Source: Mycobacterium sp. ITM-2016-00316 (GTDB lineage Bacteria > Actinomycetota > Actinomycetes > Mycobacteriales > Mycobacteriaceae). Taken from it: DNA of 64,000 nt. Of this stretch, positions 24,736-33,658 are shown in pieces. Under the pieces are notes generated by a model. That model was given only the letters and a program-made list of their open reading frames with translations, did not search any database and had not been told where the DNA came from. Both the position numbers and the translations under genes were made by a program. The stretch covers positions 620,001-684,000 of the forward strand of contig NZ_CP134398.1 of NCBI RefSeq assembly GCF_002968335.2, written 5' to 3'. Positions within the stretch are counted from its first letter, which is position 1; each line of letters starts with the position of its first letter.

Positions 24736-25377
24736 GTGACGACCATTCAGCGCAGGGCCTTCAACGACGCGATCACCCGGTTCTGGAGTTTCGCCGCCCC
24801 GGCCTATGACACGGCGTGCCTGCAGCGGTTTGTCTACAAGCCCGCCCAGGACGAAGTCATCGAGCAGCTCCGCAGCCACGATTGCATGCAGATCGCCGAC
24901 GTGGCGTGCGGCACCGGCATCCTGGCCGCCCGCATCCAGCGGGATCTGCGCCCCGACGAGGTGTACGGCCTCGACATGTCCGACGGCATGCTCGCTCAGG
25001 CCCGTCAGCGCTCGGACCGGGTGCGCTGGATGTCGTCGCCGGCCGAGCAACTGCCCTTCGAGGACGGCTTCCTGGACGCGGTGGTGACCACCTCGGCCTT
25101 TCACTTCTTCGATCAGCCGGCCGCGCTCAGGGAGTTCCACCGGGTGCTGATGCCGGGCGGCATCGTCGCCGTCACCACCATGAGCCCGCGTCAGGCGTTC
25201 CCGCCGCTGCACGCGTTGTCGGCGGGTCTGGGCGCTCCGGCCCATGCGCCGACCCCGGATGCGATGCGAAAGCTGTTCGTGGAGGCCGGTTTCCGGGTCG
25301 AGGAACAGCATCGGGTGCGCCGGCCGGTGTGGACGCCGGTCTCCGATCTGATCACCGTCGGCGTCAAGCCTTCGTGA
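24736..25377 (+). CDS. class I SAM-dependent methyltransferase (UbiE/methyltransf_11-like)
   Basis: This protein of about 213 residues has a Rossmann SAM-binding fold: motif I is IADVACGTGILAARI, the acidic loop is VYGLDMSDGMLAQA, motif II is LPFEDGFLDAVVTTSAFHFF, and motif III follows in FHRVLMPGGIVAVTT. The substrate is unknown; Rv-type homologues are many in mycobacteria. The start is GTG 24736 (VTTIQRRAF), placed by its leaderless promoter. Its last 14 bp overlap the 3' end of the gene on the opposite strand. Confidence 0.85.
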   Translation: MTTIQRRAFNDAITRFWSFAAPAYDTACLQRFVYKPAQDEVIEQLRSHDCMQIADVACGTGILAARIQRDLRPDEVYGLDMSDGMLAQARQRSDRVRWMSSPAEQLPFEDGFLDAVVTTSAFHFFDQPAALREFHRVLMPGGIVAVTTMSPRQAFPPLHALSAGLGAPAHAPTPDAMRKLFVEAGFRVEEQHRVRRPVWTPVSDLITVGVKPS

Positions 25378-26011
25378 TCCACAATTCGGCGGCCTTGGCC
25401 GCGCGGTGCAGGGCTCCGTATTCGCCGAGGTAGGCGGCGACCGCCCCGATCACCGGGAGCATGCCGATATAGCGGAAGATTCGCCGCGGGTGCGGCCGCT
25501 TGCCGAGCTCATCGCCGACGGCGTTGAGGATGCCGGCGAGGTGCCACAGTTTCTGCACGATGTTGTCCGGCCATGGCTCGTCGGTGTCCGGCAGCGGTGG
25601 GTCGGGGATCTCGCGCCCGCACAGCACCGAGGCCAGCATCCGCACCAGGTCCTTCCGGTCGGTCAGCTCATACTCGCGTGCCACCGCGCACAGGATGAGT
25701 GTCTGGCCGGCGAAGCCCAGCAAATCCTGGATCGGCAACCGGCTGGCCAGTGCCCCGAGGGCGCCGGGCCAGGCCACCGCGACGGTGTCCAGCAGACCTA
25801 CCCGCCAGATCCACCAGCTGACCCGTTCGGCACGGCTCTTGGCCTCCCACGCCTCGGTGCCGGGCACCTCGAGGAATTCGAGATGCTGCCGGACTCCGAG
25901 CGGATCGAACTCTGCGAGTACATCCAGGATCAGTTCGGACAGCGCCGCGGCACGCGCGAGCGCGTCGGCCACGTCATTGTCCGACAGGGTGGCCTTCGGC
26001 AGCAGATCCAT
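25364..26011 (-). CDS. conserved hypothetical protein at the end of the def-jetABC-xthA run
   Basis: This 215-residue protein starts at ATG 26011, which overlaps the xthA stop as TGATG (GTG 26014 is an alternative). The N-terminal half is helical and charged (DVADALARAAALSELILDVL). A hydrophobic helix lies near residues 107-122 (LLGFAGQTLILCAVAR), and a membrane-prone C-terminal segment reads GMLPVIGAVAAYLGEYGAL. It is not a TOPRIM protein and shows no nuclease motif, so it is not a JetD. The function is unknown; tight coupling to xthA suggests shared expression. Confidence 0.72.
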   Translation of the reverse strand: MDLLPKATLSDNDVADALARAAALSELILDVLAEFDPLGVRQHLEFLEVPGTEAWEAKSRAERVSWWIWRVGLLDTVAVAWPGALGALASRLPIQDLLGFAGQTLILCAVAREYELTDRKDLVRMLASVLCGREIPDPPLPDTDEPWPDNIVQKLWHLAGILNAVGDELGKRPHPRRIFRYIGMLPVIGAVAAYLGEYGALHRAAKAAELWITKA

Positions 26012-26793
26012 CACGACACCTCGATCAGTACGGGAGCATGATCGCTGGGCGACTTGCCTTTGCGTTCCTCGCGGACGATCTCGGCGTGGGTCACCCGCTC
26101 GCCGAGCGCGGCGGATCCGAGGATGAAGTCGATGCGCATGCCCTGTTTCTTGGGGAACCGCAGCTGGGTGTAGTCCCAGTAGGTGTAGACGCCGGGCCCC
26201 GGAGTGAAAGGCCGCACCACGTCTGTGAATCCGGCATCGACCATCGCCTGGAAGGCCGCCCGCTCCGGCGCAGACACGTGGGTGGACCCCTCGAAGGCCG
26301 CGGGATCCCAGACGTCCTCGTCGGTGGGGGCGATGTTCCAGTCACCGGTCAGCGCGACCGGCAGCGACGGATCGTCGGCGATCCACTTGGCTGCGCTGTC
26401 CCGCAGGGCGGCAAGCCATTCCAGCTTGTACGGATAGTGCGGGTCGGCCAGGGTGCGGCCGTTGGGGACATAGAGGCTCCAGACCCGCACACCGCCGCAC
26501 GTCGCACCGATGGCCCTGGCCTCGGCAAGCGCCTGCCATTCGGGCTGGCCGTCGAAGCCGATCTCCACGTTGTCCAGTCCGACACGGGAGGCGATCGCCA
26601 CCCCGTTCCACTGGTTGAGCCCCACATGGGCGATCTCGTAACCGAGCGCGGCGAACGGCATCGCCGGGAACTGCGCATCGGTGCACTTGGTCTCCTGCAT
26701 GGCCAGCACGTCGACATCGGCGCGCGACAGCCAGTCGGTCACCCGGTCCACCCGGGTGCGAATGGAGTTGACGTTCCAGGTGGCAATACGCAT
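26011..26793 (-). CDS. xthA: exonuclease III / AP endonuclease XthA
   Basis: XthA cleaves abasic sites and removes nucleotides from 3' ends of duplex DNA. The 260-residue protein has every catalytic motif: WNVNSIR at 6-12, MQETK with Glu34, LYVPNG, GDWNIAP with Asp151 and Asn153, and the C-terminal SDHAP with Asp251-His252. The start ATG 26793 shares its A with the jetC stop (TGATG). In M. tuberculosis its neighbour is Rv0428c (recalled); here three jet genes separate the two, so xthA is translated as the fourth gene of that set. Confidence 0.95.
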   Translation of the reverse strand: MRIATWNVNSIRTRVDRVTDWLSRADVDVLAMQETKCTDAQFPAMPFAALGYEIAHVGLNQWNGVAIASRVGLDNVEIGFDGQPEWQALAEARAIGATCGGVRVWSLYVPNGRTLADPHYPYKLEWLAALRDSAAKWIADDPSLPVALTGDWNIAPTDEDVWDPAAFEGSTHVSAPERAAFQAMVDAGFTDVVRPFTPGPGVYTYWDYTQLRFPKKQGMRIDFILGSAALGERVTHAEIVREERKGKSPSDHAPVLIEVS

Positions 26794-32184: not shown

Positions 32185-33061
32185 GGGCCACGAGGTTATC
32201 TGCGCGCACATAGCGGTGACGGTGATGCAGCCGGAATCCGGCGGACTCGTAGAGCGCCAGCGCCGGTTGGTTGTCGTCGAGGACCTGGACATAGGCGCGG
32301 GTCGCACCCTGTTCGGCCCCCCAGGCCTGCAGCGCCGAGCAGATCGCGCGGGCCAGTCCGGTGCGCCGCGACGATTCCGCGACACGCACGCACGACACGC
32401 CGAGCCAGCGGACGCCGTCCGGTGCGGTGGTGACCGCGCCCCGGCCGACCGCATCGGGCAGGGATGCGAACGTCACCGTGCCTTCGAGGACGGCGGTCAG
32501 GACGGCTGAGGGCACATCGCGCTGGTAGGTCTGCAGCCACGCCTGGCTGGGCCTGTCGGCCAGCTCGGCGGTGGGCGACGGGGATGGGGAGGGCGTCGTC
32601 AGGTTGCGGACCAGCATGCGGGTGGGTTTGATACCCGGGTTCTTCAGGGGCAGCAGCCGCTCCGGCAGGGCCAGCCACGGCTCCAGATGGCGCTCGGTGT
32701 ACCAGGCGATGATGGCGGGCAGCGCTTCGGTGCTCGACGAGAAGAGCAACGGGACAGCAGAATTGGCCCGGCTGGTGTGTCCGCCACCGGCGCGCAACAG
32801 CCAGCCGTCGCACCAGTGCTGTTCGGTACCGGGCCAGGCCAGGGCGGCCGCGTGCTCCACGGCGCGGATCTCGGAGTTGCGGACCGGCGCGTGGGACAAC
32901 TCACGCACCGACACCACATCGGCGGGATCGATCTCGACGGTCTCACCGGATTTGGTGCGCACCACCACGATGGGGTCCAGCGCCTCCAGGTGCCCGACCA
33001 CGTCGGTCAGGGATTCAGGCATGCGGTAACGCAGGGACACCCGGGCGCCGACGGACGGCAT
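32177..33061 (-). CDS. GNAT-family N-acetyltransferase (Rv0428c-like)
   Basis: This 294-residue protein corresponds to M. tuberculosis Rv0428c. The N-terminal part (about 1-60) is an SH3-like beta domain (VVRTKSGETVEIDPADVVSVRELS). The C-terminal GNAT domain has CVRVAESSRRTGLARAICSAL (acetyl-CoA pyrophosphate loop R-x-x-G-x-A) and VQVLDDNQPALALYESAGF. The acceptor substrate is unknown. The start ATG 33061 is 3 nt after the def stop, and its stop is overlapped by the jetA start, placing it in the def-jetABC-xthA run. Confidence 0.88.
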   Translation of the reverse strand: MPSVGARVSLRYRMPESLTDVVGHLEALDPIVVVRTKSGETVEIDPADVVSVRELSHAPVRNSEIRAVEHAAALAWPGTEQHWCDGWLLRAGGGHTSRANSAVPLLFSSSTEALPAIIAWYTERHLEPWLALPERLLPLKNPGIKPTRMLVRNLTTPSPSPSPTAELADRPSQAWLQTYQRDVPSAVLTAVLEGTVTFASLPDAVGRGAVTTAPDGVRWLGVSCVRVAESSRRTGLARAICSALQAWGAEQGATRAYVQVLDDNQPALALYESAGFRLHHRHRYVRADNLVAHA

Positions 33062-33064
33062 GGT

Positions 33065-33658
33065 CTAGTGGCCGAACGGGTCGGGGTCCTCGCCGGGCAG
33101 CCAACTCAACCCCGGAACCCCCCACTGGTTCGACTTCACCATTCGCTTGGCGGCGCGCGCGTGCCTGCCGATCAGGCGGTCCAGATAGGTGAACCCGTCC
33201 AGGTGGCCGGTCTCGTGCTGCAGCATCCGCGCGAACAGGCCGGTGCCCTCCAGGGTGATCTCGGTGCCATCGGCGTCCAGGCCGGTCACCCGGGCCCAGT
33301 CCGCGCGGCCCGTCGGGAAGGATTCGCCGGGCACCGACAGGCAGCCCTCGTCATCGTCGTCGGGGTCGGGCATCGTCTCGGGGACCTCGGAGGTCTCCAG
33401 CACCGGGTTGATGATCACGCCGCGCCGGCGCGCGGTCTTGCCGCGGTCCTCGGCGCAGTCGTAGACGAACACCCGCTCGGTGCGCCCGATCTGGTTGGCG
33501 GCCAGGCCGACACCGTTTGCTGCGTCCATGGTGTCGTACATGTCGGCGATCAGCTCGGCCAGTTCGGCCGGTAGCGTTCCGTCGGCGGCGACAGGCACGG
33601 GAGTGGTCGGGGTGTGCAGGACGGGATCTCCCACAATGCGGATTGGTACGACAGCCAC
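33065..33658 (-). CDS. def: peptide deformylase
   Basis: Def removes the formyl group from nascent proteins. The 197-residue metalloenzyme has the three motifs GVGLAANQIG, EGCLSVPG and HETGHLDG (metal ligands Cys and two His, catalytic Glu). The start is GTG 33658. On the minus strand TAAGCT lies 8 nt before it (33667-33672), a possible leaderless promoter for the entire minus-strand run down to the 216-residue gene at 25.4 kb. If so, jetABC expression is tied to a housekeeping promoter. Confidence 0.95.
   Translation of the reverse strand: MAVVPIRIVGDPVLHTPTTPVPVAADGTLPAELAELIADMYDTMDAANGVGLAANQIGRTERVFVYDCAEDRGKTARRRGVIINPVLETSEVPETMPDPDDDDEGCLSVPGESFPTGRADWARVTGLDADGTEITLEGTGLFARMLQHETGHLDGFTYLDRLIGRHARAAKRMVKSNQWGVPGLSWLPGEDPDPFGH

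What the first reader, a model, noticed from the sequence alone, without database searches (positions are those of the whole stretch)
25364..33658. jetABC (Wadjet/MksBEF-like) without jetD, welded by overlaps to xthA inside a housekeeping run
JetA (DUF3375), JetB (DUF4194) and JetC (SMC-like, intact Walker A, SGGEQ and Walker B) are complete, but no TOPRIM JetD nuclease lies within the flanking 5 kb. In its place the next gene is xthA, which shares one base with the jetC stop (TGATG). At the other end jetA overlaps the Rv0428c-like GNAT gene by 8 nt. In M. tuberculosis (recalled) xthA and Rv0428c are neighbours, so the cassette entered between them with the junctions kept in translational coupling. 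Hypothesis: an SMC translocase that works with exonuclease III, or a chromosome-maintenance (MksBEF-like) rather than plasmid-cutting system. JetD-less MksBEF operons are known, and M. smegmatis EptABCD restricts plasmids, so the parts are known; the xthA coupling is what I have not seen described.
Basis: partly seen in the sequence, partly recalled or inferred. Interest (0 to 1): 0.78.

Follow-up and report, generated by a model that had tools for sequence, protein, structure and literature searches.

The report
Nuclease-free Wadjet core in mycobacteria
A three-gene DNA-motor operon related to the anti-plasmid system Wadjet, but lacking its DNA-cutting enzyme, turns out to be common in mycobacteria and some relatives, and its place next to the repair gene xthA here looks like an accident of where it landed.

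Summary
In detail: jetA, jetB and jetC are intact and overlap each other and their neighbours Rv0428c and xthA. No JetD was found in the complete 5.99 Mb genome.

The XthA reading does not hold. Rv0428c and xthA lie within 150 bp in 91 of 111 mycobacterial genomes compared, so jetABC entered an old junction. An xthA match is in 197 of 198 genus genomes, yet follows jetC in only 13 of 80 named relatives. The remaining cassettes sit at many sites (78 loci fall into 16 groups under the loosest rule), with varied downstream genes.

The real finding is broader. JetC types without an adjacent JetD occur in 92 of 198 genus genomes, in a Gordonia-type genus and in a Tsukamurella/Williamsia clade. A JetC tree needs at least three JetD losses or gains. 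In seven chosen pairs dN/dS is 0.04-0.22. One subgroup corresponds by synteny to MSMEG_0370 of M. smegmatis.

Most likely it is an ATP-driven SMC DNA motor without cutting, MksBEF-like in action. Function is untested.

The parts
30784..32184 (-). jetA / mksF-type kleisin (DUF3375), 466 aa, ATG at 32184, overlaps Rv0428c by 8 nt
   Evidence: profile match to PDB JetA E about 1e-49
30131..30787 (-). jetB / mksE-type KITE (DUF4194), 218 aa
   Evidence: profile match to PDB JetB E 8e-18
26793..30134 (-). jetC / mksB-type SMC ATPase, 1113 aa, Walker A, signature and Walker B intact
   Evidence: phmmer to PDB JetC 8as8 E 3.4e-63
26011..26793 (-). xthA (exonuclease III), pre-existing neighbour; shares 1 nt with the jetC stop; not judged part of the system
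   Evidence: TIGR00633 E 7.6e-81; for neighbour statistics
25364..26014 (-). 216-aa ORF without Pfam or NCBIfam match, overlaps xthA; its homologue cluster is in 6 of 80 named loci, so not part of the cassette
32177..33061 (-). Rv0428c-type GNAT acetyltransferase, pre-existing upstream neighbour
   Evidence: PF24553 E 4.5e-87
33065..33658 (-). def, peptide deformylase, upstream housekeeping neighbour

Best explanation
This is the JetABC core of a type I Wadjet system without the nuclease JetD. It belongs to a large, still selected family of nuclease-free JetABC operons in Mycobacteriales. In this small group of relatives the cassette came to lie exactly between the old neighbours Rv0428c and xthA and is probably read as part of their operon; XthA is not a subunit. 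Most likely JetA (kleisin), JetB (KITE) and JetC (SMC ATPase) assemble into an ATP-driven DNA motor that grips and extrudes DNA but cannot cut it, so that it handles DNA (compaction, segregation or plasmid stability) the way MksBEF/MukBEF does. Shown here by computation: three intact genes, no detectable JetD in the genome, widespread relatives without JetD, selection, the old junction. Inferred: co-transcription, complex assembly and loop extrusion (from family knowledge), absence of cutting, and the physiological role.
For: Intact subunits and ATPase motifs; 78 of 80 named relatives have an uninterrupted JetC with all three motifs (these are the best 80 of 190 matches, so biased to intact copies). 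No JetD in the genome nor in any of the 80 fetched relative loci (tblastn with five JetDs; flanks up to 10 kb, shorter at contig ends). In the genus sample 92 of 198 genomes hold these JetC types (75 M80, 11 M59, 6 M54). 11 of the 92 have any JetD hit, never beside the D-less operon, and in 9 of 11 beside another JetABC-like set. Purifying selection in seven chosen pairs: dN/dS 0.04-0.15 JetC, 0.07-0.22 JetB, 0.06-0.22 JetA, against (five of these pairs) 0.05-0.13 xthA, 0.03-0.07 def and 0.24-0.40 Rv0428c. Junction old: 91 of 111. By synteny the M59 operon (fadA2-fabG4-htdX-jetC) corresponds to M. smegmatis MSMEG_0370, called MukB-like in PMC6135046 (one section read), with fabG4 = MSMEG_0372 (passages). 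The transformable strain mc2 155 has a mutated eptC (passage of PMC10123090), so the D-less set alone evidently does not bar plasmids there (inference).
Against: No experiment shows that the D-less complex forms or moves DNA. A triple mutant lacking SMC, EptC and MSMEG_0370 still forms nucleoids like its control (PMC6135046), which speaks against a large general role in nucleoid shape. The JetB N-terminal motifs (xDFxxLPxxD and PRFDGD) are about as conserved in D-less members as in D+ sisters; if they are the JetD-contact motif, the D-less complexes may still bind some effector. The cassette sits at many sites, more like a defence cassette than a housekeeping gene. A very diverged JetD would escape the searches used.
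Confidence: 0.62

Rival explanations
1. JetABC still restricts plasmids, using a nuclease encoded elsewhere in the genome (a very diverged JetD or a shared host nuclease) that docks on the conserved JetB N-terminus.
For: JetB N-terminal motifs kept in the D-less clades; some genomes carry a second Wadjet with JetD (11 of 92 have a JetD hit); cassette at many sites as for defence genes.
Against: No PF09983, PF11795 or sister-JetD match in this complete genome; 81 of 92 D-less genomes of the genus sample have no PF09983 hit; no flank gene cluster beyond jetABC is in more than 17 of 80 named loci.
Confidence: 0.17
2. JetABC works with XthA: the exonuclease replaced JetD and the overlapping stop/start couples their synthesis.
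For: 1-nt jetC/xthA overlap in the window; xthA immediately after jetC in 12 of 80 named loci and close by in one more. In 10 of 16 examined loci of another D-less clade the gene after jetC is of one homologue cluster, an AlkZ-like DNA glycosylase in the two scanned, also a repair enzyme.
Against: xthA is near-universal and away from jetC in 53 of 61 genus genomes of this clade with a listed place; Rv0428c-xthA proximity is widespread without jetABC; L068, L075 and L076, close JetC relatives, have jetABC without xthA; overlap junctions are frequent in this run; the 30 other same-strand next genes are mostly metabolic or regulatory where a Pfam family matched.
Confidence: 0.05
3. A decaying Wadjet: JetD was lost first and jetABC is drifting out.
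For: Some copies are broken: G031 and G045 carry stops, G159, G028 and G114 hold only fragments.
Against: dN/dS 0.04-0.22 in the chosen pairs; motifs intact in 78 of 80 of a set biased to good copies; deep D-less clades with tens of members without stops.
Confidence: 0.05
4. JetABC without JetD acts as a blocker or competitor of full Wadjet systems, protecting incoming plasmids or neighbours.
For: A distant JetABC set without JetD lies on a 220-kb Mycolicibacterium fortuitum plasmid, and 9 of 75 M80 genomes also hold a JetD.
Against: Most D-less carriers have no JetD hit to antagonise (81 of 92); the window copy is in a single-contig 5.99 Mb genome, taken as chromosomal.
Confidence: 0.06

Closest known systems
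Wadjet type I (JetABCD; MksBEFG; EptABCD)
   Same: JetA, JetB and JetC families, gene order and overlaps; JetC matches solved JetC over residues 3-1077 (E 3.4e-63), JetA and JetB by profile; PADLOC JetC1 model PDLC00514 fits at 2046 bits
   Different: No JetD in the operon, and none detected in the genome
MSMEG_0370 operon of M. smegmatis (MukB-like)
   Same: By synteny the M59 member of the same D-less JetC family (about 59% identity to the window)
   Different: At the fabG4/htdX site, not at xthA; identity of MSMEG_0370 inferred from gene order, its sequence was not retrieved
MksBEF (nuclease-free MukB-like condensin, e.g. P. aeruginosa)
   Same: SMC, kleisin and KITE genes without a nuclease
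   Different: Here the subunits match the Wadjet families DUF3375/DUF4194; I did not compare with P. aeruginosa PAO1 subunits
D+ sister systems in Mycobacterium (G173, G181, G164; L158-L160)
   Same: JetC 49-51% identical, same A-B-C order
   Different: Have JetD directly after jetC; their JetDs resemble each other (41-53%) more than the other four JetDs compared (26-34%)

Membership tests
Wadjet type I | JetA kleisin (DUF3375) | tested here: met
   PF11855 E 1.9e-102; PDB JetA by profile
Wadjet type I | JetB KITE (DUF4194) | tested here: met
   PF13835 E 3.2e-37; PDB JetB by profile, while a single-sequence PDB search found none
Wadjet type I | JetC SMC with Walker A, signature and Walker B | tested here: met
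Wadjet type I | JetD TOPRIM nuclease in the operon | tested here: not met
   PF09983 rings in 30 of 198 congeners
Wadjet type I | Cuts small circular DNA / restricts plasmids | not testable with these tools
   experiment needed
MksBEF-like condensin | Three-gene SMC-kleisin-KITE operon without nuclease | tested here: met
MksBEF-like condensin | Role in chromosome organisation | not testable with these tools
   a triple SMC mutant of M. smegmatis keeps condensed nucleoids like its control (PMC6135046), which gives no support
MksBEF-like condensin | Sequence membership with the P. aeruginosa PAO1 subunits | not tested
   no PAO1 sequences fetched
   13 of 80 named loci; 8 of 61 genus genomes with a listed xthA place

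The most novel reading that the evidence does not exclude
Type I Wadjet has shed its nuclease at least three separate times in Mycobacteriales and each time the JetABC motor was kept: repeated conversion of an immune DNA cutter into a nuclease-free SMC with a new job, the step that a review (PMC10586767) speculates gave rise to MukBEF and MksBEF. A bolder add-on, about 5%: the emptied JetD position recruits repair enzymes (XthA here, AlkZ-like glycosylase in the Williamsia type).
Probability: 0.4. Interest if true: 0.75.

Novelty: new variant of a known kind. Interest (0 to 1): 0.5.

Why it matters
A survey lists Wadjet as a common system of Actinobacteria (42% of genomes; PMC10482375, passages). 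If many mycobacterial copies lack the nuclease, they should not be counted as plasmid restriction without a test. The mix of closely related JetABC with and without JetD inside one family makes the proposed path from defence SMC to housekeeping SMC directly testable in laboratory mycobacteria.

Tried and rejected
JetD elsewhere in the genome: not found. JetD as an unannotated frame near the 80 relatives: not found. A conserved non-JetD fourth gene: no flank cluster is in more than 17 of 80 loci. A fourth gene in the 33-35% clade looked like a JetD by length but is an AlkZ-like glycosylase (two scanned). Nucleases in the vacated slot: Pfam of the 30 same-strand next genes found one DUF222-HNH and one SNF2 helicase; the rest of the matches were mainly metabolic or regulatory, and some genes had no match. 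Loss of the JetB contact motif in D-less systems: not seen, motifs retained; whether they equal the published IFDR motif could not be settled. The junction as a defence hotspot: ten proteins from five other inserts gave P450, a LuxR-type regulator, a histidine kinase, DUF2339, an acyltransferase, DUF222 and four without match, so only a moderately used insertion point.
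Full report
WHAT IS THERE. The window lies in a one-contig 5.99 Mb genome, 99.99% complete. The nearest named record by JetC is Mycolicibacterium frederiksbergense (99% JetC identity). 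On the minus strand def, Rv0428c, jetA, jetB, jetC, xthA and a 216-aa ORF follow each other; from Rv0428c onward they overlap by 8, 4, 4, 1 and 4 nt, the last being 1 nt if the ORF starts at its ATG. Pfam and PADLOC name JetA, JetB and JetC clearly. The PADLOC JetC1 model PDLC00514 scores 2046 bits, so this kind of JetC is already covered by that defence library. Profiles of JetA and JetB reach the solved Wadjet subunits at E about 1e-49 and 8e-18, and JetC reaches solved JetC at 3.4e-63.

NO JetD FOUND. The whole genome gave no match to JetD_C PF09983, DUF3322 PF11795 or, at E<=10, to the JetD of a close D+ system (no control of its own). The first search is not blind: PF09983 rang in 30 of 198 genomes of the genus sample.

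THE XTHA NEIGHBOUR. Among 80 named JetC relatives (the best 80 of 190; flanks up to 10 kb, shorter at contig ends) 13 have xthA downstream: 12 immediately, one (L063) after about 0.9 kb. In the genus sample 197 of 198 genomes have an xthA match, a few of them weak. Of the 75 genomes with this JetC clade, 61 have a listed xthA place and 8 of these are next to jetC; 14 had no listed place. I compared the places of Rv0428c and xthA in 111 genomes taken from the capped lists: 91 have them within 150 bp, 20 have a larger gap, and 8 of those 20 hold jetABC. Ten proteins from five other inserts are unrelated genes or unknowns. In G063, G087 and G109, whose JetC is 86-87% identical to this one, the Rv0428c-xthA junction holds no jetABC. 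So jetABC entered an old junction. The stop/start overlap with xthA is of a kind seen at other junctions of the same run and is not evidence of a partnership.

A FAMILY OF NUCLEASE-FREE JETABC. In 198 genus genomes 75 carry JetC at 80% or more (M80; some cut or with stops), 11 at about 59% (M59), 6 at about 54% (M54), and 4 at 49-51% (G086, G164, G173, G181) with JetD directly after jetC. Of the 92 genomes with M80, M59 or M54, 11 have any JetD hit: G011, G012, G027, G034, G045, G049, G088, G096, G121, G137, G154. In none does it adjoin the D-less operon. Eight of the JetD hits sit beside another JetC; G154's sits beside a three-gene set with a 1344-aa third protein, judged by gene lengths only; those of G049 and G121 are partial, with no JetC hit in the fetched stretch. 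tblastn with five JetDs found none in any of the 80 named loci. In 301 family genomes 19 more JetC at 56-58% occur, 18 in one genus and one in another. The genus is taken to be Gordonia because the named homologues at 60-63% to M59 are mostly Gordonia. 4 of these 19 genomes have a JetD hit, three beside a second JetC and one partial; of the 19 loci, 4 were read with 8-kb flanks and lack JetD. A 33-35% clade (34 full-length, 2 incomplete) has no JetD hit in any of its 36 genomes. Its named homologues include Tsukamurella, Williamsia and Jongsikchunia, and the 16 loci examined lack JetD by tblastn. Seven further, distant JetC loci (L243-L248, L250) also lack one.

EVOLUTION. Two trees agree (FastTree with 74 rows; IQ-TREE quick with 27 rows). 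The 33-35% D-less clade is sister to a clade in which D+ L158 branches first, then D+ L159 with D-less M54, then the Gordonia type, M59 and M80, all D-less. The D+/D- label needs at least 3 changes. Gain and loss are equally parsimonious on counts alone. The JetDs of L158, L159 and L160 resemble each other (41-53%) more than the four other JetDs compared (26-34%) and hold the same place after jetC, which favours descent with repeated loss. JetABC genes of M80 are under purifying selection in seven chosen pairs (dN/dS 0.04-0.22; synonymous sites are up to 47% different, so some ratios are rough). The M80 cassette occupies many sites: 16 groups among 78 loci when one shared flank gene suffices, 28 when two are asked. 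The largest group is chained by single links and some singletons reflect short contigs, so these are rough bounds. No gene cluster beyond jetABC is in more than 17 of 80 loci. Of 79 M80 loci with a visible next gene, 13 are xthA-site loci, 30 have another same-strand gene within 200 bp, 29 an opposite-strand gene and 7 a farther one. The 30 include six luciferase-like oxidases, four copper oxidases, one HNH and one SNF2 protein.

LINK TO A KNOWN GENE. The M59 operon examined (L149) sits beside a thiolase, a 450-aa reductase and a MaoC dehydratase, the fadA2-fabG4-htdX set (htdX named from recall). fabG4 is MSMEG_0372 and fadA2 MSMEG_0373 in M. smegmatis (passages of PMC10699116, and of PMC10433963 for fabG4). 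[quoted passage not shown] M. wolinskyi and M. goodii proteins are close M59 homologues (89% and 87%). I infer that MSMEG_0370 is the M59 JetC; its sequence was not seen. PMC10123090 (passages and one section) says that mc2 155 carries a mutation in EptC and shows an mksFEBG operon for M. smegmatis. So the D-less set evidently coexists with plasmids in the standard transformable strain; this is an inference, as Panas et al. 2014 itself is not held.

MECHANISM. The parts are those of a dimeric SMC motor. In known Wadjet, JetABC gives shape sensing and JetD the cut (PMC10586767, passages and one section). Without JetD the best-supported expectation is DNA gripping and extrusion without cleavage. 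What good it does is open: the triple mutant argues against a large chromosome role. In C. glutamicum, MksBEFG affects plasmids and not the chromosome (PMC7083940, passages), and in M. smegmatis EptC is described as acting on plasmid topology and segregation (PMC6135046). A non-cutting effect on plasmids is therefore possible. The retained JetB N-terminal motifs leave room for an unknown partner.

NOVELTY. Among the papers listed by searches on Wadjet, JetD, MksBEF/MksG and mycobacteria, seen as listings and, for some, passages, I met none that describes this family. The library lacks most subscription papers and preprints, so this is no proof of absence. I file it as a new variant of a known kind: the Wadjet core without a defining subunit, common and apparently derived several times.

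Noticed in passing
L211-L218, L221, L222 (just after jetC): In the Williamsia/Jongsikchunia-type D-less clade one homologue cluster follows jetC on the same strand in 10 of 16 loci of the 33-35% clade; the two members scanned are AlkZ-like DNA glycosylases (PF06224), gap -62 to +6 nt in the 5 loci measured. Some upstream flank genes are as widely conserved, so it may be plain synteny.
   Followed up: partly
L184 (M. fortuitum plasmid CP089609.1): A 220-kb plasmid carries a distant JetABC set with no JetD annotated or found after jetC.
   Followed up: no
L082, L085, L098, L107, L109, L112: Extra DNA of about 1 to 6 kb separates jetA from jetB or jetB from jetC in some M80 cassettes; content not examined.
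   Followed up: no
L067, L069, L073, L074 and L260, L261: In the M. llatzerense-type group about 2-4 kb, including in L261 a 555-aa ORF of no Pfam family, lies between Rv0428c and jetA, while xthA still follows jetC.
   Followed up: partly
window 24571-25377 and L068, L075, L076: A methyltransferase gene lies near jetABC both at the xthA site and in three relatives whose jetABC is away from xthA, hinting at a past rearrangement.
   Followed up: no
L159, L160: JetABCD sets of G181 and G164 are among the closest systems with JetD; in G164 jetB and jetC are split into pieces.
   Followed up: no
window 20927-21005: The only tRNA gene found in the window, tRNA-Thr (ggt), lies about 4 to 6 kb beyond the operon's downstream end; no tRNA-borne element was looked for.
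   Followed up: no
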